Positions 20,593 to 64,000 of a DNA stretch of 64,000 bases are shown piece by piece. The DNA lies in assembly GCA_009192285.1 (NCBI GenBank), contig CM018603.1:6135613-6199612 (forward strand), read 5' to 3'. A program made the position numbers and the translations under genes. Within the stretch, counting starts at the first letter, position 1. Every line of letters begins with the position of its first letter. The stretch comes from Morchella semilibera (lineage: Eukaryota > Ascomycota > Pezizomycetes > Pezizales > Morchellaceae). A model generated the notes under the pieces. It did no database searches, was not told the origin of the DNA, and saw only the letters and a program-made list of their open reading frames with translations.

Positions 20593-22310
20593 TTACACTA
20601 CCTCCTCATGGTCATTGACATTGAGCTCATCAAACTCATCAAGTAGTTCGTCCATGGCAATTTCTGGCAATCCCTCTTCCTCGTCGTCCTCGTCCGTTTC
20701 CTCAACCTCCATCTCATCTCCAGTCTTCTCCACACCCTCCATTCTCGTACCGCTCGGTGGGTTCTTCCTCGTGTTCTTGTACAGCGCCAGCGTTCCTCTA
20801 AGCTCCGCATCTTCCTCAACATCCCGCAAGAACATCTCATAATCGCGCTCTGCACGCTCCTGGTCCTGCTTTCTGGGCAACATCTCGGACTCCTCCTTCG
20901 CCATGCGCTGCAGCTTCCAGTTACGGGACTTATTCTTCTTCTTGCGTGGGTAGCTCTTCTTAACGAGTATGACCTCAGGGATCCGGTCCGGCGCGTTGCG
21001 CTCTAGCTCTTCGAAGTGCTCGTTGTTGAGGTTTGCGCCGGTAAGATGGTAGCCGAGCGCAGTATCTCCAGGGTGTAGAATACCGCCGAGATGGGTGCGG
21101 ACGAGGTAGGTGTTGTTGTTTGATGCCATGTCAGATGAGCGGGCGACTGTGACGTCCGAGAGGACGTGCTTTCCGTGAGTGGCACCCAGAGGCTCGATAT
21201 CGAGAACGATGAACTCGACGAGCGAGGACACATCAGCAAGGGAGCTGAAAGGCGCACGCCAATATACGTTTGTAGTGATGTCGGTGACCTGAAGGGTATT
21301 GGGGTCGAGGAGATGGATACTGTTTCCGACACGGTTGCAGAGAAGGAGTGGGGGGATGTTTCCAAGGGTGCGGGCCAACTTAAGAGGGATGCAAACAAGG
21401 TCATCTTTACAGATTGGCACAATCTCTATTGAGTATGTGAACTTGTAGGACTTTGTGGAGGTGTGGATATCCGTTGAGATAAGCTCAGACGACTTCTGTG
21501 ACCGTACCGGAGAAACAGCGGCAAGGAAGTCGACCATTTTTGTGGCGTGGTTTCGCTGAGAGTAGAAAAAGTCTAATCCGTCCTTGGCTTCGCGAATATT
21601 TACAGTGTCACGGTGGGCGTTGTGTTTTAAGATCAACTGTTCGAGGTAAAGGAAAGTACGCTTATGCGGGACTTTCTGGCGGACTTGCACACAGGCTCTC
21701 CACGTATTTGCTATATGACCACTATCAGCAATTGCCCACAAAGCAAGTTCTCCATGACCACTGCTACTAGCACGACTAACCTGTATACGACTTTGCACAA
21801 TCGGGGCACTGGTGATATGCCACGACGTACTCAACCTCAAAACTTTGCTGCAGAATTGTGGACTCGAACGCCTCCTGTTGCACCGTAATCTTGACCTTGA
21901 TTCTCTTCGAGTGGGGTTCCGTCCATATGAAGCTCGCATCGATAATTCGGACCTTGGTAAGACCCCTCAGTCTGCGCAAACAGAGCGCAAGCAGTTCTCT
22001 ACTCTCTAGTGCGGCAGCAACCCAGTGATTTGGGGGTTGCAGCCAGCGATCACAACCACGGCAGAAATGAATAGTTGCTTCGCGCTGGATTCCGGAGGAG
22101 ATATCGACGTTAAGTTTGATGCAGTCATAGCACATAGCAACACCGGTACTGCCATCTATAGGGGCACCACAGGTTGCGCAAAGAATCCTAGAGCGGCAAC
22201 ATTGGTTATTTGGGCACTCACGGGTATGGGGCAGGTGCTACTAACGTTGCGATGGATGCTTTCTGGCCCGCGAAGGGCTGCATTGGTACAGAGTCGTTGT
22301 CGATCTCCAT
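20593..22310 (-). CDS. NMD3: 60S ribosomal export adaptor Nmd3, 537 aa, three exons
   Basis: Minus-strand exons: 22310-22222, 22187-21781, 21710-20593; 1614 nt in frame. Nmd3 loads on pre-60S subunits in the nucleus and brings the exportin Crm1 through a C-terminal nuclear export signal. Four CXXC pairs make the N-terminal zinc region: CATC, CYDC, CRGC and CPDC. Conserved runs include DISSGIQREATIHFC, ELLALCLRRLRGL, FIWTEPHSKRIKVK, LISTDIHTSTKSYKFTYS and LLDPNTLQ. The C-terminus is acidic and ends with a Leu-rich stretch (MDELLDEFDELNV) fit for an export signal. Length is close to the yeast protein (about 518 aa). The second splice restores SYTANTWRACVQVRQ. It stands head to head with the EF-hand gene across 410 bp. 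Confidence 0.98.
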
Positions 22311-35257: not shown

Positions 35258-37725
35258 TTCGGTTTTGAGTTGAATTTTTTTTTTTTCCCTTGAAAGATAG
35301 AAAACGTATTCGAAACGCTGAACGAGAGTCGTTTTACGAAAGCGAATGTGTGTTCAAGTGAGGAACAAAGACTGATTATCTTACTGCAAGAAATGTAGTA
35401 CTGATGAATAGTGAGGGAGGGAAAGAAAGAAAAGGGGACTCCTATCGAGTCTTTATACACAGTTGAATATACGGTATTCGATGGGTACATGTACTATCGA
35501 CCAACCTCTCCAAAAGTACATGTAATGCAGATTGACCTATAGGTTTGTTTCTTTATTAGTATTCATCCAATGATTTGATTCGAAGAAGGTGCCAATTTTG
35601 CAGATCCTAGATCGCATCGCTCCTAGCCATACATCTACCTTCGCCACACAAACTCAATACACCACGGAGGTTGAACGGAACACATCCATCCCATGGCATG
35701 TGAATGATTTTACATGTATCCTACCTACCTATGTAGCTACATGTACCTATCTAGGAAGTAGCCAGTCTATTCCATGACACAGCGCATACAAACCATGGTA
35801 CATGTAACCTCTTAACCAAACCTGATGTCAAGTACCTACATGTACTACATAGTACTCTACGTTGTCCTAATTTATTTATTTACGAGATGTGACAGATCAT
35901 GGTCCTCTTTGGCAATTACCGAAGCTGGTTAACCGGCTAAAAAGCTTAACAAACGCACAAAGTAAATCTGGGGAAACTGGGTAACAACGGAACCCCCGCA
36001 ACCGCAGTTTGGATACCGAGGTGGCACGTCGTTGGAAAGGGGCAAGTAATGTACCTTCGACAGCATGTGAAGACCGCTACTGGTACCTCCCTTCCTTTCC
36101 ACCTTCAAACTCTTCAAACTCTTCAAGCTCCATCAAACTCAAAGTCTTTTGACAATTGGAAACAGCTAATGTTTACAATAACGCACATTAAATGAAAGAA
36201 AAAATAGGGACAATGTTGATTGGGATTCTGCCCTTTTCCAATGAAGAGTAGGCAGCAGCCCCTCATTCGGATGTTTTAATTCCCTCAGCTGCCCAAATTC
36301 TTGCTTTAACCACCATTAATCCTGTGGACACTGGCATCTTTCGAAACAGATGGCCGACGGAGGTCGATGCTGCCGAGCCAACCGGAAAGGAGCCCTGGAA
36401 TTGACATTTCCTAATGGAGTAAAGTTAGTTGTAGATCATTCACCTGAACTAGATACCTAGTTGCCTTCTCCAGCTCCTCGCTTCCCCCAAGCGACTAGTG
36501 GCGCTACAGTATAATTAATCGAGGCAGTTCTCCAGGCTGCAGTAGGAAATTAAGTGAAATGGACTCCAACACATCATCACCTCCAAATGAGCTCCCTTCC
36601 CATTCTACCGGCTAGAGTGAGCGTGAATAAAGCTCAGATTTACAGCGACTTTGATTCGGGGCCGTTGAGTAGATTATGTGCGTTATGATAGGCAGTTTCT
36701 GTTTCTCCATATAGAGAGAGCATATTATCAGGCATGGGTCCCAACGGGGAAACCTTAGAGTGGCAGCTGTGTCTACTTTCACATACTAAAAGCTTATGCC
36801 TAAAGTGATGTACTTTGCAGCACTCTCTACCAATCTATTCTTTACATAAAGAAATATCCTCTAAAAATACCACAAACCCTCCAATGCTCTCGCCCCCTAC
36901 CCCTTTTGAGATGATTAATATTCTAGCTAACCACTGATTCATCACAGATCTAGATTTTCAGTATGTAGCTAGTAGCACAAACGTCATTTGCTTCACCACC
37001 CTGCATGAGGACTGGCCGGGCGAATGGTGATGTCCGGATTTATTGCTAGGTCTAAATTGGTTCCTAAGCTTGGGACTTACACGTACTTTTCCCCAACGGC
37101 TATGTCCCGGCATGCTCACATGTGGGACCACTGGGGTAGGCGCTTCTTTAGAGCGCGATCTCGGGCACGCCGTGTATGCATACTGGGGCCTGTCCCATCC
37201 TTCCTTTCAACATGTCGATTTGGGCGTGAGGTCAAGGTACAGGTAATTGTTTAGAGGAGAGGCCAAAGAGGTAATAGCTAATGTCCATCAAACCGTAGTG
37301 GTACACAGTTCACATGCCATTATGAAAGAATGCCGAAAATTCTCTCAACATGGGTACCTACGTGTTCAATGCTTGAGAAACCGGTATTGAGGTAAAGTAA
37401 AAAGGGAAAATCACATTTTAACTATTTAAATTGGTAGGTGGATCGTAGGCTAAATATTTGTGACACATACAGATAGGGTTGTTAGAGCATTGATGTGTTG
37501 GTGGCTCTCACTTCCCCATATTACACAAGAAGGGGTTTTTTTTAGCATACAGTGCTTGACTCCCGAGGGTTCTGACAAGCGATATTAAGGTACTCCGGGT
37601 AGCTTTAGGAGATTTTGAATTCTTTAAACGTCACTCAAGTATAGGATCTGGGACTCGGAGTTAACAGTGGGATTCGAGTGATATTTGATGATTTAACTCC
37701 TAAATCTCATCAATGATCAATCCCG
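35258..37725. other. Gene-free stretch, dense in TACATGTA
   Basis: The upstream side of the CFEM gene carries six TACATGTA sites between 35486 and 35844 (35486, 35517, 35711, 35738, 35799, 35837), the densest cluster in the window. No supported gene. Confidence 0.5.
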
Positions 37726-38728: not shown

Positions 38729-40679
38729 GGTTGTGTCTGGGGAGTTTTGTTGAGGGCTGACAAGGGCTGACTCTGGGTGTTATAGGGGTTGGGCAGATTC
38801 CGGTGCTCGTGACGAGTGAGCTTGGGCTGACGTAGGAGGCGCTGTGGAGGGCGGCGTTCACCGATAAAGGGTCTCCCCGAATGGATGGTGGGGTGGCCCT
38901 AACCCTGTAGTGTTTATCGCCTCTGAGAAGAGAGGATTTTAAGTGGTAATTAATTTTCAGCCTGTAGAGATCAGCTCAAGATGGCTTGGTTATAGGACAT
39001 GTTTGTGGGGTACGTTTGGGGGCTGCGGTTGCTAATAATTGTTGCAGGTCTTGGCAGATTAATTGGAACTCGGATCGATCATTGGCATTATTAACAATTT
39101 CATTTGCGTTGTCATTCAACGGTTTGGGGGTATTGGTTCGGTCTCTGTATTTATATAATATTTATTATTTTTGTTAATCACATTTATGGTGCCGATACTA
39201 CTGAAGTTGGAGGGAACAAATAAACTATTACTAATCTATTGCGCCTTCCACCTCCAGTATTGGCTTATGCGGTATTCTCCTGTTGTTACGCCCTTACCCC
39301 GAGAAGCCAGCACAATTTCTGCCTCAGTTGTTGTCTCGTCCGGGTATCTTGTCTCTATCAACTCTGGCGACGTCCTCAATACCTAGACCCCCAGGGGTGT
39401 TTGTCGCTGGTGCGGGAGTCGCTTACTCTCCTCGAAGATCACCTGGGCCGAATCTTCCTCTACTGGGGCCCTTTACCACAACCATAGAACTCTCTACTAT
39501 AGCTATCGCTACCATCCCACGGATACTGCTAGAGGCCCTTGTCTCTAACTACCCAAGTGTGTTAGCCACGCAGCAAGAGAGCTCTTAACAAAGTGGTACG
39601 CAGGCCCTTACTAGCGCTATCGAGGCCGAGGGTAGCTTTAATCTATGGAAGCATAGGCGCCGGGGAACGATGGGGCGATATCATATTGTTTTTTATTGCA
39701 GACTAGACCGAGCAGAGGCCCATTGGTAGAGGAGTGGTGATGAGTCCCATGGGTTGATCTTTGTTGGGGGTCATGTAATCCCTCCATTGATAATTTGCTC
39801 TCGGTGTGCCTGGGGGCTAAGAGCTGGGAGGGGGGTAAGACTACAGAACGGTGGAGATAGTGGGACGAGACCTCATAGCTGCGTGGGCGCTCGGGGGTTC
39901 GGCCTTTAGTGCTAGCTTTTGTTCTACCTCGAAGCTGGATGCACCTGGGTCCGCTATCTGAGGCCGCGTGGATTGTGGTCCTTGTAGGGTTCTGGTGTTG
40001 ATATGGGGTCGTGGGACCCGGGGATGTGGTTCTGTTGTTTTAATAAGTGCTGGCTGGCGGGTCTGGAGCTGAGTACATGTAGTAAATGGGCATAGTGACA
40101 GTTGGTTTATTGATTATTAGCTACCTCGAGCTCTTCGGTGATGTTCAAGGAAGTTGTCATGGAGGGGTTGTCTATGGTTATTTGCCTACATGTACTTAGC
40201 CACATACATGTAGTCTTGGGACCATAAGTTATGCGAGAGCGGTGGTTTCCACCAACGATAATTGCTGCATGGATACAGGTATATATGCACTTACATGCAT
40301 ATCTTATGCTACGGCGGGCATTAGCTCTACTAAGTACTAATACTCGATAGAGCTTGCGTCACGGGCCATGGCTCGCACTATACCAAGGAATGAACTTGGC
40401 TCTAGTTTTTAGTCTTGGGCTCCCACAATTAATGATACATGTATAAACAAAAAAGAAAAGAAAAAAATCTTTGGCTCCCCGCCGTGGATCTAGGGCGAGT
40501 GATAATCTATGAAGATGCACCTTCGCCAGGTGGTTTTGGGTTAAGCACTACAGGTACATGTGGTCTTGCTTATTCCGCGGTATCGGTTCCATATAGACGG
40601 GTATCTGGTTTGGTTTGTGAGTGGTAAATCACGGGGTGGGGATAAAGGAAAGCGAGGGCTTGAAATTTTGGGTTACAGA

Positions 40680-46164: not shown

Positions 46165-49100
46165 ATGTCTGAAACCGGCGATACAGCAACCTCATCTACC
46201 TCCTCAGCTCTTATAACCCCGCTACATGCAGCGGCTTCAGGTCCCACTCTTCTCCCGGGTCCAGTCGCATCGCTCGTTTCAATAATATCAAAGTCTACTT
46301 CAGTTTCAATCAGACTTGGTTCGTTTGTAGGGGGAGCTGCTATTGCCGGCGCACGTATTGGAACTCTGACTGGGTTAGAGCTTGGAAGGGCTGCGATCGA
46401 GGGTATTCTCCATAGGGCAGGGCATGACGTTAATTCTAGAAGACTTGTTGGCGGGAACCATGTGAACGGGTGGACGGAGACTGGTGTGAGTAATTAGCCA
46501 CTGGACCAAGATCAGTGCTTGCGCTTGTGTCGCAAAAAAGGCCCCTTTACTGATGATCCATATACCTCGCAGATAAATATACTCCGCTCTTCGATATCCC
46601 TAACCCAGCTTCTACTCTCAACCGGCTTCGAAATCTCTTCGACTACACTGAGCACCCTCAGCTCATTTGCTGAAACCTATGTTCTTACACTCGACTCCAT
46701 ATTTGGCTCAACTGAGTCTTCACGCGCCATCTCAGCAATCGTATCGCTGATGCGCAAGGAGTTCGACGAGAACTCTGAAGGTGAGGGCCGAATAGGGGCT
46801 GCGGACTTGGTGATCGGCCTTACGTGTTTTGCAGTTTTGCAAATGAAAACAAGGGCTAGGCACGATGATGAAATAGAGACTGAGCTTGTGTGGGATGTTG
46901 TTGCGGACGAGGTGGGTAAGAAAGTTGATATCACATTAGGACGGAAGCGGGATTTTTCCGGGGAAACTGAGTCTGTAACATCATTTTTTGGTGATGAGGA
47001 AATGGACTCTATTTCAGTATATAGTGGCCATGAAGACGAAGATGAGATTGGAAGTGGGTTGCCACCCATGTTTTTTGCGAGGTTACCTCCGTAAGTGTGA
47101 ACTTTTTTCCGTCAACGGAGATAAAAACCTGCTGATACCCTGTGTAGTTCTGCGGATATATCCATCACAACTTCATCCACGACCACAAAGACCACAACTG
47201 TGGAAGTCATAGGAACAGAGCCTCCAGATTTCACTCCACCTGAAGGAGCAGTTATAATTTCCGAGAATTCGTATCAAGACGACAACAGGCCTCGATATAA
47301 GATTGTATACGAGACCATCACAAATAAGACGGAGAACAAACGAGTAAAAAGAGAGGACGGAGAGTATATCGACACAGATGATGTAGTTAGGGATAGTGGA
47401 AGGGTCGTTGAGGAAATACCATCAGATTCATCATCATCGACACTGATCGAAATCCCAAGAAGAAAGCCAACCCGTCGTATATCCTCCAAGGACAAGGAAC
47501 TGCCCACGACCTCAAAAGACTCCAAAAAGCATCGGTCAAAAGGTGAGCCGATTGAAGCGAACTCGGGGAGACGGCTGGCCTCTCTTGGGGGAGGAGGCTC
47601 AGAAAAGAGGCGGGGTGAGAAGCACAAGCTTCGAGAAGCCGATTTCGACAGAGAGGAGAGGCGTAAGGAGAAAAAGAGGGAGAAAGAAAAGGAGAAGGAG
47701 AAAGGGAAAGAAAAGACGGAGAAGAGAAGAAGAAGAAGCGAAACTTTATCGGAGGCCCTGGTGCCCACTGTTAAGAGAAAGAGTGGGCTAGAATCACTCG
47801 CCGTCTCACCTAGGAGTAGACGACTTACAAGATCTGCCACAGAGCCCCCGTTTTCGCCCCCGTTTTCGCCCCCGTTTTCGCCCCCGTTTCCGCCGAATAT
47901 CAGAGGCCCTAGTAGACCTACATCTCCTGAGGCGAGGCCATTTCATCGAAGCAGTTCGCGAACTAGGGTGTTTCGTCGGGAATCATCCATCTCGGGGAGG
48001 TCTGAGTTTCATTCAGCCTCCGCGTATTCTCAGTCCGCAAATATTGAATCATTAGATTCCTATTTGCCACGCAGCCAGCATGTCCGAGGATCTCCCTCGG
48101 TTTACACAATTAGATCCTCCCACTCTCAAACCTCCCTCCTCTTAGAGTCCTATATCCCCCATCCTGATGAAGTATTCCCGAACGCCCCTATTTGCATCAA
48201 CTTTGCAAAATATATGCGGTTCGCAGCAGCCTCGTATGGTCAGAGCTTCATGCAGTTTTTGGGGCTTGGTTCAGCACCGATCCTCCCACCCGCATCGGCG
48301 CACCACGCAGAGCACCACGCATTTTCGCATCATACAGAACTCCCACTTGATACAATCCTTCTGAGCTCTTTCGTAGACCCTGGAGGCGGATATGATACGG
48401 AGGGAAATGTAAATAGCGGTATCCCACTTGTCCATTTTGTGGCCGTGGATCATCCCTCAAAAGCTATTGTAGTCACTTGTAGAGGCACTCTTGGCCTAGA
48501 GGACGTACTAACAGATCTCACATGCAATTACGACGATTTGACTCTTCGGGGAATCAAATACAGAGTCCATAAGGGCATGCTCAACTCCGCCCTCTTGCTC
48601 CTTAGAAAGAAATCTCGATTGCTGGTAGTCGTTAAAGCCGCTCTTGAGGATTATGGTGAGTATGGGCTTGTCTTTACGGGACATTCTCTCGGGGGCGGGG
48701 TAGCAGCAATGATTTCAATGTTACTATCATCACCCTGTAACGGCACATTCATAACCAGCAACGCCGCTGCCACATTGACAGACGGTGTCCGCATTCCTGA
48801 AGGTCGCAAGATTCATTGTTATTCATATGGTACTCCGGCATGCGTATCGGAGGAACTTCGGCGCGCAACTCGAACCCTTATCACTACTGTCGTTCACGGC
48901 AGAGATATCGTACCATCTCTCTCATTCGGAATTATCCGTGACTTCTGGACTGTTTCGGTTGCGTTTAAAGAGGACAATAAGGGCGCAAAGGCGGAGATCA
49001 GGAGGAGGATTATTGATGGCCTCAGCAGAGGAAACCTAGGAGGGTCTCTTGATCACGATGACTGGGCATTTGCGGTTATGAAAACATTACGAGCGTCTAT

Positions 49101-49344
49101 GAGGGCGGAGAAGTTGGTTCCGCCCGGAGAGGTGTGGAATGTGGTGACAGAGAAGGTATATAGAGAAGGAGATGATGGGCCAATAGGGGTGACGGGCAAA
49201 CTTAGAGTTAAGGCATTCGTCATTAGAGATGTCAAGAAGAGATTTCAGGAGATTGGTTTTGGAAGCGGAATGATGGCGGATCATAGTCCCTATTGTTATG
49301 AGAAGGCATTGGATGCCTTGAGGAGGGGAGTTGAGGAAGATTGA
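46165..49344 (+). CDS. Class 3 lipase (alpha/beta hydrolase), 1021 aa, three exons
   Basis: Exons: 46165-46483, 46541-47090, 47148-49344; 3066 nt in frame. The N-terminal part (about 1-290) is helical (ILRSSISLTQLLLSTGF, LTLDSIFGSTESSR). Residues about 300-600 are disordered, with a Glu/Lys/Arg-rich charged block and a four-fold PFSP repeat near 47849-47893. The lipase domain covers about 640-1015. The nucleophile elbow GHSLGGG has Ser at about residue 803, an Asp in HGRDIVPSLS is the likely acid, and a His in ADHSPYCYEKAL may complete the triad. The VDHPSKAIVVTCRGT run is the oxyanion-side strand. Class 3 lipases of this size cut acylglycerols, and some act as sn-1 diacylglycerol lipases. 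The substrate here is unknown. The first donor (GTGTGA at 46484) is weak but is the one that keeps frame. Confidence 0.92.
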
Positions 49345-49813: not shown

Positions 49814-51800
49814 TTAGGGGCACGAACCTAGCAACTCATCGATTTGGCCCAGGAGCGAATCATACATCATACCTGCCTCAGTATTGAGATTCTTACTACC
49901 TTCAGCAGTTAATTCCCCTGGCTGGAGCTTCTCCTGCTTGTTTTCCGGATTTATTCCTCGGCCAGTTTCCCTTTCCCCACCCTCCCCACCCTCCCCACCC
50001 TCCTCGCCTTCTTCATACATCTGCATATCCTCCACACGCATGCGGAAGCGTTCATTAAGATAATGTCGGATATCATCAACGAGCTCAATCGTATCAGTTT
50101 CCTGCCGATTCTCGATTCTTTCCGCGCTCTGCGGAATATTAGTTCTGACACTCTGTTAAATAGCTCCGGGTGCCTTGCCTCTTGGATTAAATCCGCAAAA
50201 TTTTTATCGTCAATAAAGAACTCAAGTCTCTCCGCGATATACTTGGCACCAAACTCTTCAAGCCTATGGATCCTAGTCAACCAGCCCGCACGAATAACAT
50301 CGTAGATACTATACGGCAGGTCGTCTGTGTGACCTGCAGTACTAATAACTTGGGCGCAGCGAGTCTTCAATCTGTCAATAAGCAGTTGGTCTGCGGCGAA
50401 TAGAGAATCGAGAGCTATTTCTAGTGGTATTTCCACTTTTTCGGAGTAGAAGAACGCTAATACAAGCTCAAGCACGGCGGGTGACATGTCTAGCGGAATG
50501 ATCTGTAGCGGCTCATCGTCGCGGCTTTTTTGACCCTCGCGGAAAGGGGAGCTGAACATGGTTGTGAAGAATTCAGAGCGAAGCATTGCTTTGTGAACTG
50601 GGTAGATGACTGTGCGTTTTAGAACGCTGGAAGCCTCAGCATCGACCTCATCCTCATCGTCTTCAGAGCTCTCAAACTCGTCTGCTTGCAGCAAGACATC
50701 TGCAAACATCTCGTTATGCCTATCCACACGAGTATTCTCTGGTTTCTCTCCAGGACCCAGCTCAATCTTTCGCCCAATAACAAACTTTTTGAACCATTTA
50801 TCAAAATCATCCTGCGCCTTTTTGACACTCTCGCTCCTTTCCTGTCGTCGGACTCGTGGATCACCCGCAACGAGAACTAGCTCCCACATTTCTGGAATTT
50901 CCAAGTGCCGACTGAGCTTCTCAACTCCTAGCAATACATCCTGTGGTGCTGACTCCATCACCTCGCCAAGATACATATAGCGTACTGCGATATCAAATGC
51001 ACGTGCGTCAAACGAGTTCGCCAATCTAATCTTAGTCTGCTCTTGTAACTTTCTTTGGAAATAAGGGGAGCGGGCAGCCAGGAGGAACTTGTGCAGCTTG
51101 AATTCTTTGATTACTGCCGATGAACTTGATGCCGCGAGGATTGTCACATCTGTTACGTCGATTACGGGCCGGTAGAGTAGTGAAGTCACTCCTGCTGCCC
51201 AAGGTTGGGCAGGGTCAATGCTTTTCGAATACTAACGAGGAGAGTTCAGTAATTCTCCTAATCAAGCAAGACAGTGGGTTTCGCATACATCATATTGCAA
51301 CAATAAGTTTCGGATCCGATGGTTCAGTGCGTTATAGAGAATCCTTTCGCCTTGAAACGTATCTCGCTCACATATAGCTCCACTTTCAAGTAGTAGTTGC
51401 GCTACTTCATAGTGGCCACAAAGACTAGCCTTATCCGGAAACACAAATTTAGTCAGTAATCAACTTGGTAGCTTTTCCAACTTGAGAATAAACAATAAGA
51501 ATATTACCAAAGTGAGCGGCAGGTAATCATAAGCATCAACTGCATTCAAATTAACATTCCCAAAGGCGATGATAGACTGGACTGTCTTGACATCCCCACG
51601 TCTACATGCCTCGCATCTATTACAATTACTTAATACTTTTCACAAGATCTTATCGCCACCTACGGAAGAACTTACAATTGTTGAAAAGTCTCACTTTCGT
51701 CACGTGGGTTCTCTTGGGTGCCACCCGCGTGTCCCTCGTGGACAAGCTGGGAAATCAAAGCTGTCTTTGAGGGATTCGAAACATGTTCTACTGTAACCAT
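49814..51800 (-). CDS. Ankyrin and BTB/POZ-domain protein (ABTB1/BPOZ type), 580 aa, five exons
   Basis: Minus-strand exons: 51800-51676, 51616-51508, 51429-51289, 51231-50179, 50128-49814; 1743 nt in frame. N-terminal ankyrin repeats are seen in LCEACRRGDVKTVQSIIAFG and ASLCGHYEVAQLLLESGA. Two BTB/POZ modules follow: DVTILAASSSSAVIKEFKLH with HKFLLAARSPYFQRKL, and YPVHKAMLRSEFFTTMF. The end (RQETDTIELVDDIRHYLNER) is conserved in the fungal homologues of yeast YIL001W. Such proteins are thought to be Cullin-3 substrate adaptors. The last intron (50178-50129, 50 nt) has a GC donor (GCAAGG), a good ACTAAT branch site and CGCAG acceptor; only this removes a frame break and joins LIQE to SAERIENRQETDT. 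The tail has a Gly/Glu repeat from a GGTGGGGAG-type microsatellite. Confidence 0.92.
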
Positions 51801-56746: not shown

Positions 56747-58730
56747 TTATATACCAAAAGCCTCAGCATGGAACCAAATACCTTGGGCCCCCGTTCCTTT
56801 GTGCACAGCCCTTTCATCGCTCAACCCCACAACTACCATTCTGCTCGAATTGATCAGCCCCACGGGTCCACAGACCACCACAGCCGTCTCTCCGAGCGCC
56901 TTTTCTAACTCCTTCCGAATGATAGGTTCAACCGCTGGGCGCCCAGCCATGATATGCACGTCGTCTGGCAAACATAAGGTGGTTGCTGATGATCTCCTGT
57001 TGAGGTCCTTCCGTTCCTCCTCTTTCTTGAGCCCGCAGCAGCAGCACTCTTCTTTGGGTTTCTTAGCATCAGACGACACTATAGCGTCTTCGTCTTCGAG
57101 TGTTTCCTGGCAGCAGCACACATCGCCACTGCAAAGCTCGGCTTCAGAAAGGCCGGCCGCTTCCTTTTCGGACTCTCGTTGAGGTTGTTGCTTCTCTTCG
57201 TATTCGGGGGCATTATCCGTGGTTAAGGACCCATCACAAGTGACATATATGCTAGTCTCCAACTCAAAGTCCTTCATCCCTATAACGCTATTTACTGCGT
57301 CCGCAAACTCCTTTGTGAACCACCCCACTTGCCCACGCCCCTTCACGACCCAGACCAGTCGTACCTTCCTCGTCACTGTTGGTAGACGCTCCTGTTTTCT
57401 TCGTACTAGATCTCTCATCAGCGGCACTATAAAGGTTGCCCCTGTACCACCAGCTAATAGAACTACAGTATCAAATTGCTCCAGCGGTCGGAAACATCCA
57501 TATGGTCCATCCACTACGACAGTTTTTGCCACATCTGACATTGGTGGTAACGTGTCGCTCGCATGTGAGAATAACTTCCGAGTCGCTCCTTCCTGGGCCC
57601 TTACAATGAATTCCAACGAATTGTCCGAGGGGAGACTGGTGATCGTGAAAGGATGGGATTGAAAAGGGATGATGGAATGGCAAGACAGAAAGGCATGTTG
57701 TCCCGGCCTCCATCTAAATGGCGGGTTGGCAATGGTTACTTTTGTTGTATTTTCTGGTAATGGGTGAAAGGTCGCCTTGCACGCAAGAAGCTGTTTTGGT
57801 TTTCCATGAAACAAACCAAGGTTGTTATACACCACGAAAACAAACCTGATCAAGCGGTCCAGGAAGAATATCCCGACTGGCACCCATACATACTTGTGTG
57901 CTTTTGTGGGCGTGTGCAGCATAACCATCGTGACAAACCCAACAACACTCACGATATGTTGCACAACAAAAAACTCATATCTCCACCCTCGTATCGGCGC
58001 AAAGCTTGAGAGAACGATCCACAGCAGCACGCACCACGCACCCAGCCCTCTTCTTGATATTATGTCGATGTCGAACTTCCTTTCGATGTAATTGTATTGA
58101 TCCCATGTGCGTAGGAAGTTTCCTAAATGGACAGATGCTGTGAGGAACATAGTCCGCGCTACCCAGCGATGAATCCAATTCAAACGTTCATACGAGATTC
58201 CAGTGGCGTATCCAACTAAGCTGCGCTTGCCGGCGAGAAGGAAGATTAATGGAAGCTGAGTGAGTGTTATCCAACCTGCCCGTACCCCATGGCTTCCCAG
58301 TGTCGTCTATTAGTGGGTTGAAAGCCATACAACGCTAACGAAAGCAGTAACGCAAGATTAACTGCAACTAGTAGTATTTTCCCAAGCGGCGGTAGTGTCG
58401 CCAGGCGTGGATAGCGCTTGTGTAGTGATGGTAGAAATGGTGCGGTGTAATATGTTGCCTCACGGGTTATTGCAGTGGCCGTAGCATACCACCGCAGTAA
58501 CTGATTCTTAGGACGGGCTGGGTCTAGAAGAGCTTTTGAGGCCGCAGAGAGCCTAGATTGGTGGTTAACGAATAGGCTTTATGGGCCAAAGAGAAGAAGC
58601 ACCTTTGATGGCATATTAGTCTATCAGCAATGTGTATGGCTGAAGCGAATGCTATTGTTCCTCCGACAAACATCCAATACACTTCGGCCATGTATGGATC
58701 TGTAGGAAGGTCATGGCCAGCGTGGGACAT
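56747..58730 (-). CDS. Ferric/cupric reductase (FRE type), about 644 aa, with one apparent frameshift
   Basis: Minus-strand exons: 58730-58603, then 58552-56747. FRE enzymes move electrons from NADPH through FAD and two haems to reduce Fe3+ or Cu2+ outside the cell. Membrane helices fill the first half. Two His pairs for the haems are visible: in HRWVARTMFLTASVH, and in HIVSVVGFVTMVMLH. The FAD motif is HPFTITS, and NADPH-binding runs are LLAGGTGATF and VVCGPVGL. Near 58282 the frame changes: upstream reads EAMGY, downstream reads RAGWITLTQLPL. One extra base, TAC(C)GGG, would join them, so this is a one-base loss or a sequence error in the host gene; no plausible intron was found. A Cys-rich insert (CSGDVCCCQ and EECCCCGL) lies at 57020-57145, within the NADPH domain. 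It stands next to copper genes. Confidence 0.9.
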
Positions 58731-60577
58731 ATTGCCTGAGGGGACTTAAGGTAGAGGAAAGGCAACGAAGGCGAGGGAGTCAGTTTCTTCGGGGAGAAAC
58801 AACTGAATGCAAATGATATTGAGAATGAGATTGAAAGCTGATGGACATAAGTGACAATAGAAAAATGGGAAGATTCTCAGAGAGCCAATATTGTCATTCG
58901 AGATCCAACATCGGCAGCAAATAACTCACAATGAGAAGATTACGTCCCGTAAGCCAGCCAGCCTTCCCGCATTTCGCTTTCATTTTATCTCACCTAATCC
59001 ATTCCCATAAAATCGACCTTACCTGTAGTTTTCTCCCTTCTTAACCATGTGGGGTTTTTGGTTTTGGCCTATCACGCCTCCCTGCTCTGTCGCCAACCTG
59101 CTCAGCGCGCCTATCCCTTTTAGGCCAAAACATGCTCACCTACAAACCAGGATCCATCCCGCTCAAACTCCCGCACCACATCCCGACGACACACTAAGAG
59201 CGGACATTCGAGTTTCTTGGCCCCACGTGGCTCAGATCTGGCTTAAACCAACTTGTAGATGAGCTCTCTACTCATACAGGTAGCAGTAGCAGTGCAAGTC
59301 TCAGGTATAGCTTCGCTTTGTTCAAGCCTAGAGGCTAGAGATTTAGATACAATGTAGCATGAACCATGATGACAGCATTTGCTGGCGTCACAGAAAATCA
59401 TTCGACCACATCCCTACCCGCGGCGTAGCGATGTGATACATAATATTACCTTATCGGGGCTTTATGATCGTATCGATATTTGGTGAACCCAGTAAACATT
59501 CGTCCAATCAAGTTAAACTTTAAACGAACTGAAAAACAAAGAACGTAGAGATCAGCCAAGACAGCTGATGTGGCTCCTCGGGGAGCATCATTCGAGCCGA
59601 GAATACGAGAATATTAAGGTACATGTACTCTGGAGTAGACTCGTAGAGTACCCACATAGTGAGGGGAAGAGACGCCTCGTTCCTTTGAAAACTTGATAGG
59701 TATAAGGTAAAAAGGTGTGTCATCTACATACTCTACCATGGTCTTACAGAGGGAGAGAGCTGGCTACTTCTGTAAAACGGATATGTCAAAAACCTTCTAT
59801 TACACGATCATGAAGTCTCGTCTCCAGTTTGAAGCTGAGCCAGGCATGGTGAGTGCAGTTTGACATTGAGCCTTGGCGTGTGGTCCTGCGCAATCAATAC
59901 ATGTATGTTAGACCGCCAAGGTGCAGATTCCAAATGTGCGAGACGACGTGCCGCCGCCAAGAAAAACAGTCGATGTCGGATCCGGGGTAGACCTGAAGCT
60001 CTATGGTTTCAAGGAATGAAATGGCTCCCAAGCTAAACATGAGGAGTGAAGGGGCAGGAGTTAAAGGAAAGGAAGGAAGGGTTAAAAACTTTGGATTTAC
60101 CTACATGTTAGACTACTAACTGATGGAATGGACCCTTGCACTTGCGGCTTAAGGCAGTGATCAACCAACATAATCCTCTCAAACTGGCGCATTAGCCAGC
60201 CCCGCCGTAGCCAAGTAAGAGGGTTCTATCAAATATTACCATCAGCGCCATAGACAAAAACACCTTCACCCCCTCACTCACGCGCGCTCTTCATTCTTTC
60301 TTTTCGCCCCCTTGGTCCCTTACATTGCATTCAATCAATCTAACCGACATCATTGACACTTCTATCAAACACTCCTCAAGACCCCTTCTTCCACCGGTTT
60401 TAGGACTGCATATCAGGGACAATCTCTGTGCCTTGGAATTTAAGCTTATTTTAAGTTAAGGTATTTATATCTTTAAATCCATCTTGATACATACCTTATA
60501 AACCATTCAATCTACCAGTCTCTCTGTGCAAAGCTCGATTTATTTCTATCCGAATAAAGTAAAAAAATTTAACTAAA
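58731..60577. other. Divergent intergenic region between FRE and CTR genes
   Basis: 1.85 kb with TACATGTA sites at 59620 and 59898. I searched by eye for yeast Mac1 sites (TTTGCTC) and found no clear pair. A TTATAAA element near 60496, about 80 bp before the CTR start, could be a TATA box. No gene supported. Confidence 0.45.
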
Positions 60578-61248
60578 ATGCCTAGTCTCTTTTCTCGTCA
60601 CGGTACAATGGCCGCAGACTTCACTCTCAATTCCGACACCTCGTCCACCACCTCGTCCCACGACGGGATGGACATGTCCTCTAGCGACAGCACCATGAGC
60701 ATGAGCATGGCTAGCATGACCTTCCATACTTCCATCTCAGACTCCCTCTACGCTACTGCGTGGACTCCCAAAACCCAAGGTCAATATGCCGGCACAATTA
60801 TCTTCCTCATCCTCCTCGCTTTCTTCTACCGCTTCTTGGCAGCCTACCGCAGCGTTCTAGAGCACCGGTGGGCAAAGATAGATTCGGAGCGGAAGGTACT
60901 GGTGGCTGCAGCGTCGTCGCAATCACAGGATAGTGGTATAGGGAACCCCAAGGAGAATGTGGCGGCGGCGGCGGCCGGGGGCACTGAGAAGGGTCTCTGG
61001 GCAGCGAAGCCGTGGAGGTGGAGCGTAGACCTGCCACGATCGGGATTGGCGGTGCTAGTTTCCGGGGTTGGGTACTTACTGTGAGTATCCCGCATTCTGG
61101 TTCCTACATGTATTTAGAGGATGAGACTGACTAGAGCAGAATGTTGGCGGTAATGACCTTTAACGTTGGGTACTTCATGGCCGTTCTTGGTGGGATATTT
61201 GCAGGAGAATTGGTATGGGGTCGCTGGATCAAGACTGGGGACCATTAG
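60578..61248 (+). CDS. Ctr-family copper transporter, 203 aa, two exons
   Basis: Exons: 60578-61080 and 61140-61248; 612 nt in frame. Ctr proteins are trimeric plasma- or vacuole-membrane channels for Cu(I). The N-terminus is Met-rich (HDGMDMSSSDSTMSMSMASM), a copper-collecting region. TM1 is about GTIIFLILLAFFYRFLAAYR. TM2 carries the MXXXM copper motif in MLAVMTFN. TM3 has GYFMAVLGGIFAGEL with the GXXXG packing motif typical of the family. The splice at CT/A joins GYLL to MLAVM and so completes TM2. Length suits Ctr. A TACATGTA palindrome (61105) lies inside the intron. Neighbours are a metalloreductase gene and a copper-binding surface protein gene. Confidence 0.96.
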
Positions 61249-61932
61249 GTCAAATTCTTTTTTTACCACTATCTATATACTACGGGCGCTGCAACTAATG
61301 CTGAAGTGACATGTCTCCCCTTTGTCGTATTTCCTTTTACTACTGTTTGGGAGGGGTTCTGGGTGTTTTTGGGCTTGGATTTACATAGCTTATAAATTTG
61401 ACGACTCGGAAATAAAATATTTTTGGCTGTTTCTTACAATGGTCATGATCGCGCCTAAAATGAGGGTTTTTCCTCAGGCTAAAAACCCCATGAAAGGATT
61501 AAGCGCATGCTTGATATTACTCTCTGCATGGCTAGCCTTGGGCTGCCTTGGCGCAGACCCGACTGTTGTTTTCAATATCCTTGGCAATGGGTACCTGGTA
61601 GGGTACCTGGTACCTGCTATAAAATGACTCTCATAAGGCACCTTGAAGAACTTACGGGTGAGCGCACAATAGTCATGGAGCAAGGTAACTTAAGAGTTGA
61701 GATGTCACAAGACCTAACTGCATGAGGAAAGCTACATGTTTAATTGTGGATCGACGTCCGAACAGTGTAGACGATTCCCAATTATTTGTATTATCCAGGA
61801 CCCATCATCCCAAAGAAATAAAGAAAGAAAGAATAAAGAATAGAAGGGAGGAAAGAGAAAGGTCCACATGTATCATGAATAGCATATCATACCATGAATT
61901 AATTATACAAATAATTGAACTCCCTCAAAGAC
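61249..61932. other. Convergent intergenic region between CTR and the Bim1-like gene
   Basis: 684 bp between two 3' ends. It includes a short GGTACCTGGTAGGGTACCTGGTACC internal direct repeat around 61590-61616. No gene supported. Confidence 0.45.
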
Positions 61933-62664
61933 CTACAAAGCCAGCGCCACCAAAACACCAGCAAGAACCATGCCACCAGCCGTCAACCTTGCCGCTGCAT
62001 TGGTACTCTGCGGAGAGCTAGAGGCGGAGGAAGTGGGAGTAGAAGTCGAGGTTGCACTGGCAGAGCCTGTGGCAGAGGCAGAGCCGGTTGCGGAGCTGGT
62101 AGAGCTGGAAATAGCCTCTGCGCCGACGCCGGTCCCGTTGACGCAATCCTGTGTCATCATTACTGGCTCGCTCGTGAAGGTGATGTCCGCGCACTAGTTT
62201 ACCCAAGGTCAGCCGTTGGAAACATCTAGTATGGGGGGATAGGTGAGGCAAACATTATACAGCCCGCCACCCGTGTGGCCTCTCTGTACGACCTGGATAG
62301 TCGCATTGACACCGTCAGCCACTCCTGGTGTCCCATCAGGGACACTGAGGGTGTTCCAGCAGAAGGTCCCAAGCCCGATCTGTAAGAATTGCGGCGAAAG
62401 AGTAATGTTGAAATCATTTGCGGAGGGGTTGTTGCCAATGGCAAGGTAGACAGCAGTCTCGGCCTCGTCGTGGCCAGCTTCAAATTCAAGGGCGCCGCCC
62501 TCGACTCCCCAGGGGGAGCGCTCTGCAGAGGGAGTATTAAGACCTCCACATGGGCTTTCAGCTTGTGTCTCGTCAGAGTCGCCGCGGGATGTTGGGTAAG
62601 TGAGGGAGAAGTGGGCGTTGACGGCCGCTGCGGCGAGGGAGAGGAGAGCGAGAGAGTACTTCAT
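61933..62664 (-). CDS. Bim1/X325-like copper-binding surface protein, GPI type, 223 aa
   Basis: Minus-strand exons: 62664-62254 and 62193-61933; 672 nt in frame. Residues 1-17 are a signal peptide ending VNA, so the mature protein would begin with His18 (HFSLTYPTSRG). An N-terminal His after cleavage is the mark of the copper-binding LPMO-like fold, and the HFxLxYPxxRG opening with a following SPCGG is what I know from the Bim1/X325 family. A second His, His65 in EAGHDEAETA, is a good partner ligand. Four Cys (CGG, FCWNT, NCADI, QDCVNG) could make two disulfides. A Ser/Thr-rich stalk and hydrophobic tail (LVALAL end) suit a GPI anchor. In Cryptococcus, Bim1 helps the Ctr importer to gather copper. 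The neighbouring Ctr gene supports that role here. Confidence 0.9.
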
Positions 62665-64000
62665 CTTTTGTATTGTGGATATCACGGGTTTGCTTGATAC
62701 GAATGATGATTGATGTAGAGGAGGTGGAGGATAGGTGAGGTGAAAAGGAAGAGATATTCCATTTTATAGTATAGTTTAGTATATTAAGGCGTTCCCAGCC
62801 ATCATGAGCGGGTTTCTACCTAACAAGTGGGTCAGGGTCGAATTGGTCTAACGTTAACCATAAACCAACCTTGGAGGGGGGAGGGGGGGTCCCAGAGTTT
62901 AGTGATCAAGACCTTTCCACTTCCTTGCCAAAGCGGATAGCTCCAGCCAAACAGAACTCACGAACTTCCAATCGCAAAAGGGGCAGCTGGGAAAGTTCCC
63001 TTCAATTTATCCTTTTGAAGATCTCTCGTCATCAGTGAGATTTCTCCCTTTGCAATCATTCGTTCAGAAGAGCCCGAATCTCGAGGAGCACAACGAAATT
63101 AGATCACGATCTCTCCCTTTTATCTTCGGCAGACAGGAGCCAAGAGGAGAGCGGGGGGAGCATTTTTCATTTTTCTGGGTCCCGGAGCTCGGCCGGAAGC
63201 AAAAAAAAAAAGAAAAGAAAAAAACTGGCTCACTTTACATATGTACATGTAGGTTTTTTTGTGGGGTTGAGATTAGTAGACTTTATTATTTACATGTAGT
63301 TGGAGGGAGGTTGTGATATCCCACTCCCGCACGAGGAAACCTGCGCAAATCAACTCAAACGCCAAGATTAAGGTTTGGTCATGGACTCATGGTGTTCGGC
63401 CAATTCCGAGCTCACACTATGCCGGATAAGGAGGGGGGACAAGCTTACAGGATTGTGGGTGCAGTATTTCCCCACCCCAAGTTCCGAGGTATCGCCAGAT
63501 CTTATGGCAAGTGAACTTCTGCACTGCGGGCTGTCAGACAAATCTGCTCTTTTTCTTCCAACGATGCCTGTCTTGGGTCTGTAAAAGATATAAGCTTTCG
63601 CTCAACTGCGGAGCAGCGGCGCGAATGAGACCCAGCATACAGAAACCACTATTAAATATTAATTATACCCAACCCAGTTGGCCAAGTTGTTTAATATCGG
63701 GATATACCCATTATTGAGTATTATTTATTGGGTTCCGCGCAGAAATCTACATGTAGTACTTCCCATGTGACAAAATTTAGTTTCTCAACCTTATTTTTAA
63801 TGTTGCATGGTCGTCCTCTCTTCACGATCCCGTATCGGTTTTTCGTTAGGCACACTACGGCATAAAGCAAAGCTCCCATGCGCAGAGTGATACCTAAACT
63901 AAGGACGGTTGGTGGCTGTTGACTAGAGGGCCCGGGCCGAGCGGGTACTCTGCAGGTAGTTTTGACAGGTGGTTCAGAATGATGCATGTGGCTCTTATCA
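62665..64000. other. Gene-free right end
   Basis: The first few hundred bases should be the Bim1-like promoter, with TATAGTATAG-type AT-rich DNA near 62765-62785. TACATGTA sites are at 63244, 63292 and 63748. No gene supported before the window ends. Confidence 0.45.

What the first reader, a model, noticed from the sequence alone, without database searches (positions are those of the whole stretch)
56747..62664. Compact copper-acquisition locus: FRE reductase, Ctr transporter and Bim1/X325-like protein side by side
Three neighbouring genes cover each step of copper uptake: reduction of Cu(II), capture at the cell surface, and import of Cu(I). Established: FRE reductases feed Ctr channels in yeast, and Bim1 assists Ctr in Cryptococcus. 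Seen: the three genes with intact diagnostic motifs apart from one frame shift in FRE. Inference: a co-regulated cluster. I do not know of a described three-gene cluster of this kind.
Basis: partly seen in the sequence, partly recalled or inferred. Interest (0 to 1): 0.75.

Follow-up and report, generated by a model that had tools for sequence, protein, structure and literature searches.

The report
Known fungal copper-uptake gene trio
Three neighbouring genes in a morel-like fungus encode a metal reductase, a copper channel and a copper-binding surface protein; the same trio was already described in Aspergillus, so this is a new example of a known arrangement.

Summary
A FRE-type metalloreductase (56747-58730, minus), a Ctr copper transporter (60578-61248, plus) and a BIM1/X325-like protein (61933-62664, minus) lie side by side, with Pfam matches above cut-off. 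FRE has one frame change near 58288 that no intron explains. The host is morel-like (FRE 85% identical to Morchella snyderi).

A Fre/Ctr pair is kept in 110 of 127 fungi screened (PMC7705104). By shared contig lengths, 10 of 84 BIM1-like hits lie on a contig with a listed FRE or Ctr, four with both; three cases disagree.

Mac1-type TGCTCA sites are enriched over four Ctr upstream regions pooled (8 against 1.9 expected) but not over this locus alone, and none lies in the 1000 bases upstream of BIM1. Co-regulation is plausible, unproved. Low surprise; useful evidence that the neighbourhood is widespread.

The parts
56747..58730 (-). FRE-type metalloreductase gene; intron 58602-58553; frame change near 58288
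   Evidence: Pfam; frames and intron; homologue alignment
58731..60577 (.). Intergenic region shared by the divergent FRE and CTR genes
59099..59104 (+). TGCTCA, Mac1-type core; not significant alone
59130..59138 (+). ACATGCTCA, holding a TGCTCA core; word shared with two other Ctr upstream regions of this genome
60578..61248 (+). Ctr copper transporter gene, 203 aa; exons 60578-61080 and 61140-61248
61933..62664 (-). BIM1/X325-like gene, 223 aa; exons 62664-62254 and 62193-61933; His18 and His65 as candidate histidine brace

Best explanation
This is the morel version of a conserved fungal high-affinity copper-uptake locus. The FRE protein reduces Cu(II) at the plasma membrane. The Ctr protein, transcribed divergently from the same 1.85-kb region, imports the Cu(I). 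The BIM1/X325-like protein, tail-to-tail with Ctr, is a surface copper binder with an LPMO-type histidine brace that gathers copper for Ctr. Shown here: gene families, order and strands, conserved brace histidines, recurrence of the neighbourhood in other fungi, and enrichment of Mac1-type sites over this genome's Ctr upstream regions as a group. Inferred from other species and family knowledge: reduction, import, hand-over by BIM1, anchoring at the surface, and induction by copper starvation through a Mac1-type factor.
For: Pfam matches. BIM1 matches the solved protein 6ibh (E 1.1e-9), whose residue 1 His aligns with His18 and whose GH aligns with the GH at 64-65; His18 is kept in 81 of 81 and His65 in 82 of 82 homologues with a residue there, of 84 aligned. 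Same trio adjacent in A. fumigatus (PMC2481287). Fre and Ctr neighbours sharing a Mac1-bound promoter in A. nidulans, pair present in 110 of 127 species (PMC7705104); divergent ctr3/fre9 with Mac1 sites in F. oxysporum (PMC11563359). In P. destructans, genes of all three families rise under copper withholding (PMC12113139), and BLP2 and the gene with the next number, VC83_03096 (FRE7-like), both rise about 12-fold as proteins (PMC13208438). TGCTCA: 8 in four Ctr upstream regions against 1.92 expected, P 8e-4. Three copper-fist matches exist in this genome.
Against: FRE is frame-broken in this assembly. No TGCTCA in the 1000 bases upstream of BIM1. The two TGCTCA sites between FRE and CTR are not significant by themselves and lie about 1.45 kb from the Ctr start (about 0.4 kb from the FRE start). 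No expression data. In A. fumigatus the trio rose in response to neutrophils, and the triple deletion gave a menadione phenotype with normal growth on low iron; a copper phenotype was not in the passages read. Under copper excess Afu6g02820 is more strongly raised in wild type than in an aceA deletant while ctrA2 falls (PMC8425704), so reductase and Ctr there do not simply move together. In P. destructans the Ctr genes have distant gene numbers, so the trio is not obligatory. Sequence does not exclude iron as a FRE substrate.
Confidence: 0.85

Rival explanations
1. FRE and CTR are a copper-regulated divergent pair, while BIM1 is a mere neighbour that is regulated separately and acts on the cell wall rather than in copper import.
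For: No TGCTCA upstream of BIM1; F. oxysporum has the pair with a different third gene; BIM1-like upstream regions pooled show no enrichment (3 against 1.65, P 0.23). The family shares the LPMO-type brace, and Cbi1 is tied to cell-wall integrity (PMC12113139 passage).
Against: BIM1 recurs on the same contig as FRE or CTR in 10 of 84 hits although the partner lists were capped, and beside them in A. fumigatus, where it was raised with them.
Confidence: 0.25
2. The FRE gene of this strain is a true pseudogene, so the locus has lost its reductase and another FRE supplies Cu(I).
For: Frame change without room for an intron in alignments to five homologues; other FRE-type matches exist in the genome.
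Against: The rest of the frame stays open over 519 codons with about 85% identity to M. snyderi, as expected of a live gene with an assembly error at a short homopolymer.
Confidence: 0.25
3. The locus serves reductive iron uptake or a general oxidative-stress response rather than copper uptake.
For: FRE proteins can reduce iron; the A. fumigatus triple deletant failed to grow with menadione.
Against: The same deletants grew normally on low iron; Ctr and BIM1 are copper families; none of the Pfam-scanned neighbours is an iron permease or ferroxidase, though not every gene of the window was scanned.
Confidence: 0.07

Closest known systems
Aspergillus fumigatus Afu6g02800 (GPI-anchored, BIM1-like) - Afu6g02810 (ctrA2) - Afu6g02820 (metalloreductase)
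   Same: Same three families, adjacent, with the Ctr gene numbered between the other two; raised together in hyphae facing normal against CGD neutrophils; deleted as a block in 2008 (PMC2481287 passages). XP_747795, XP_747796 and XP_747797 are listed as A. fumigatus counterparts of FRE7-like, Ctr1a and BLP2 of P. destructans (PMC13208438 table).
   Different: The 2008 paper treats the first gene only as a putative GPI-anchored protein. That it is BIM1-like is my link, through YA280_ASPFU (AFUA_6G02800) as the name given to P. destructans BLP3 (PMC5810475). Strands there were not read.
AnfreC-AnctrA (AN3208-AN3209) of Aspergillus nidulans
   Same: Reductase and Ctr side by side sharing the promoter region where Mac1 binds; 110 of 127 screened species hold the pair (PMC7705104 passages).
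   Different: The passages seen do not mention a BIM1 neighbour.
ctr3-fre9 cluster of Fusarium oxysporum
   Same: Divergent Ctr/Fre pair with Mac1 sites, with ChIP-seq and RNA-seq support (PMC11563359 passages).
   Different: Third gene FOXG_07771 is described as a SAM domain-containing protein, not BIM1.
Cryptococcus neoformans Cbi1/Bim1 with Ctr1
   Same: BIM1-family protein working in copper uptake through Ctr1 (PMC9258870, start of abstract in search listings).
   Different: A basidiomycete; gene adjacency there was not checked.

Membership tests
Ctr copper transporter (PF04145) | Match over the whole Pfam model above cut-off | tested here: met
   139.4 bits against 25.3, positions 1-150 of 151
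Ctr copper transporter (PF04145) | Met-rich N terminus, MxxxM and GxxxG membrane motifs (recalled; MxxxM also in PMC7705104) | tested here: met
   MSMSMASM, MLAVM and GIFAG read in the spliced protein
BIM1/X325-like (PF20238) | Match over the whole Pfam model above cut-off | tested here: met
   127.7 bits against 27, positions 1-140 of 140
BIM1/X325-like (PF20238) | Histidine brace: mature N-terminal His plus a second His | tested here: met
   His18 and His65 aligned to 6ibh, invariant among homologues with a residue there. Signal cleavage before His18 is inferred, no predictor run.
BIM1/X325-like (PF20238) | GPI anchoring | tested here: inconclusive
   Ser/Thr-rich stretch and hydrophobic tail read; no predictor run
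BIM1/X325-like (PF20238) | Copper binding and delivery to Ctr | not testable with these tools
   needs protein or genetics
FRE metalloreductase | Ferric_reduct, FAD and NAD domains and two bis-haem His pairs | tested here: met
   three domains above cut-off; H46/H60 and H117/H131 of the 519-aa frame
FRE metalloreductase | Uninterrupted coding frame in this assembly | tested here: not met
   frame change near 58288; membership as a gene of this family rests on the domains, activity of this copy is open
Mac1-regulated Fre/Ctr divergent pair | Head-to-head Fre and Ctr sharing an intergenic region | tested here: met
   58731-60577
Mac1-regulated Fre/Ctr divergent pair | TGCTCA sites in the shared region beyond chance | tested here: inconclusive
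   2 sites, expected 1.04 (P 0.29) or 0.76 (P 0.18); four pooled Ctr regions P 8e-4, five P 0.003
Mac1-regulated Fre/Ctr divergent pair | Induction under copper starvation | not testable with these tools
   no expression data held

The most novel reading that the evidence does not exclude
FRE, Ctr and BIM1 form an ancestral three-gene copper-import unit of filamentous ascomycetes, kept from morels and truffles to Xylona, lichen fungi and Aspergillus. BIM1-to-Ctr copper hand-over, worked out in a basidiomycete, would then be the general ascomycete mode, and the triple deletant made in A. fumigatus in 2008 would already be a strain in which to test it.
Probability: 0.55. Interest if true: 0.45.

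Novelty: new member of a known kind. Interest (0 to 1): 0.25.

Why it matters
It extends a copper-uptake neighbourhood known from Aspergillus to a morel-like fungus and its relatives, and ties BIM1-type proteins by genome position to Ctr transporters over a wide span of ascomycetes. That makes the BIM1/Ctr partnership testable in harmless laboratory moulds. It adds no new kind of system.

Tried and rejected

Intron as the cause of the frame change: rejected, since both frames abut at one point for the five homologues tested. P0002 was not among them because its predicted protein begins just after that point; why it begins there is unknown.

Second haplotype copy of the FRE stretch: one match only, itself.

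Stricter patterns: T[T/G]TGCTC and TTTGC[T/G]C[A/G] have no match between FRE and CTR; upstream of BIM1 each has one (63086 and 63342; P 0.30 and 0.15), no more than chance. TTTGCTG has 2 between FRE and CTR against 0.40 expected (P 0.04), but this is one of four patterns over eleven regions, so it was not counted.

The pooled Ctr count uses four regions (window, L016, L013, L015) and leaves out the weak fifth Ctr match, L017 (0 sites); with it P is 0.003. L015 matches only positions 1-34 of the Ctr model. The 1000-base upstreams of L013-L015 and L017-L019 were measured from about the Pfam match, not from a start codon. The longer word ACATGCTCA was chosen after seeing the sites: 3 in the four regions against 0.042 expected from 516 in the genome, P 1.2e-5, or 8e-4 after allowing for 64 extensions. 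The pattern read backwards, the tool's control, occurs 299 times in the genome, so ACATGCTCA is itself somewhat common.

Synteny by the DNA of relatives: the window has no relatives in the genome search, and I ran no scan of the prokaryote or viral collections. Equal contig lengths and locus tags were used instead. The FRE and CTR lists show 120 of 1279 and 120 of 340 hits, so absence from them says nothing. Against: Pyronema omphalodes (FRE and BIM1 on different contigs), Ascobolus immersus (CTR and BIM1 on different contigs), Cryomyces minteri (FRE and BIM1 on different small contigs); these could also be paralogues.

The solved-structure search by sequence with the Ctr protein gave nothing at E 0.1. 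The ten papers listed for Morchella and copper terms show no morel. No structure was predicted.
Full report
What is there. The window lies in a 56.8-Mb genome of 23 contigs. The best named homologues of the three genes are Pezizomycetes; FRE is 85% identical to Morchella snyderi, so the host is a morel or a near relative; the species was not determined. FRE (56747-58730, minus) carries Ferric_reduct, FAD_binding_8 and NAD_binding_6 above cut-off, a 50-nt first intron (read) and both bis-haem histidine pairs. CTR (60578-61248, plus) is a 203-aa Ctr protein after removal of a 59-nt intron. BIM1 (61933-62664, minus) is a 223-aa PF20238 protein after removal of a 60-nt intron; M. snyderi P0121 has the same spliced junction sequence LYNCADITF. 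FRE and CTR are head to head over 58731-60577; CTR and BIM1 are tail to tail over 61249-61932.

The frame change. tblastn with five homologues (P0001, P0003, P0007, P0014, P0016) gives, for each, one match ending and the next beginning in another frame at about 58288, without room for an intron. The genome search found one copy. The predicted M. snyderi protein P0001 reads through uninterrupted. Assembly error and true frameshift cannot be told apart here.

Is the neighbourhood kept? One search lists all 84 BIM1-like hits that it scored; searches list the best 120 reductase and 120 Ctr hits. Four thus have all three genes on one contig. FRE and CTR share a contig in at least 14 cases by the same reading, for instance Thelocarpon (tags 002484/002485) and Sclerophora (005800/005801). 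On long contigs this shows linkage, not adjacency; the 18,568-base contig and the close tags show nearness. Three cases go against it: Pyronema, Ascobolus and Cryomyces minteri. The other BIM1 hits could not be judged because the partner lists were cut.

What was known. In A. fumigatus Afu6g02800, 02810 and 02820 (GPI-anchored protein, copper transporter, metalloreductase) are stated to be adjacent on chromosome 6, were all higher in hyphae facing normal than CGD neutrophils, and were deleted together; the deletants failed to grow with menadione, were not sensitive to hydrogen peroxide and grew normally on low iron (PMC2481287, passages). Afu6g02810 is ctrA2 (PMC8425704 and PMC6177249, passages). 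That Afu6g02800 is BIM1-like follows from its being the name given to P. destructans VC83_07867 (PMC5810475, passage), which is the BIM1-like BLP3 (PMC12113139, passages). In A. nidulans AN3208 (freC) and AN3209 (ctrA) share a promoter where Mac1 binds, and 110 of 127 screened species have the pair (PMC7705104, passages). F. oxysporum ctr3 and fre9 are divergent with Mac1 sites, with ChIP-seq support (PMC11563359, passages). So a cluster of this kind is described, though the paper searches, as far as listings and passages were read, show nobody naming a BIM1-Ctr-Fre unit as such.

A result that does not fit simply: in A. fumigatus under copper excess, ctrA2 falls, while Afu6g02820 is among metalloreductases raised more strongly in wild type than in an aceA deletant (PMC8425704).

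Regulation. TGCTCA occurs 30 times in the window, no more than expected (33.8). The FRE/CTR region holds two (59099 and 59133), not significant alone. Over four Ctr upstream regions of this genome (window, L016, L013, L015) there are 8 against 1.92 expected, P 8e-4, or P 0.003 with the weak L017 included. Three of the four share the longer word ACATGCTCA, present 516 times in the genome. Four BIM1-like upstream regions hold 3 against 1.65 (P 0.23), the window's own none. Three copper-fist matches exist in the genome, two of them with equal scores at near-equal positions on two contigs; whether one is a Mac1 was not tested. Control of FRE and CTR by a Mac1-type factor is therefore moderately supported, of BIM1 not.

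Mechanism. By established knowledge of the families, FRE gives Cu(I), Ctr imports it, and BIM1 binds copper at the surface through a histidine brace. The brace residues are shown by alignment; binding, anchoring and hand-over are inferred. A second head-to-head FRE/CTR pair lies at C19:2.63 Mb (L016) with no BIM1 match near it, and the other three BIM1-like matches lie 132 kb or more from any Ctr match.

Verdict. A genuine copper-uptake locus, correctly read, in an arrangement already described in Aspergillus. Interest is modest and comes from the wide span of the neighbourhood. Fungal classes behind 'wide span' are recalled, not looked up.

Noticed in passing
window, 35 places, e.g. 35486-35844, 40074-40443, 61105 (inside the CTR intron), 63244-63755: The palindrome TACATGTA occurs 35 times against 0.93 expected from dinucleotide shuffles. 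In 143 kb of this genome it is the most over-represented 8-mer (of those seen 15 times or more) against a first-order Markov expectation, 98 against 2.2; against its own 7-mers it is 98 against 83, so its sub-words are enriched too. Flanks differ, so it is not one repeat family. Meaning unknown; the ten papers listed were not read.
   Followed up: partly
L016 2099-5091 (G000:C19 about 2,628,600-2,631,600): A second head-to-head FRE/CTR pair in the same genome, with two TGCTCA sites in its 810-base intergenic region.
   Followed up: partly
G000:C9:1577351 and C10:1577211; C12:1143654 and C13:1142583: Copper-fist and ferric-reductase matches recur with equal scores at near-equal positions on pairs of contigs, which suggests that some contigs are alternative copies of one chromosome.
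   Followed up: no
L020 (window 63388 to about 9.3 kb beyond its end): Six open frames of 110 aa or more, the longest 159 aa, in 9.9 kb next to BIM1: it looks gene-poor and would bound the cluster on that side; short exons were not excluded.
   Followed up: no
window 49951-51231 (-), 47125-49344 (+), 20593-21966 (-): Other genes of the window with no copper link: BTB/POZ protein, class 3 lipase, NMD3.
   Followed up: no
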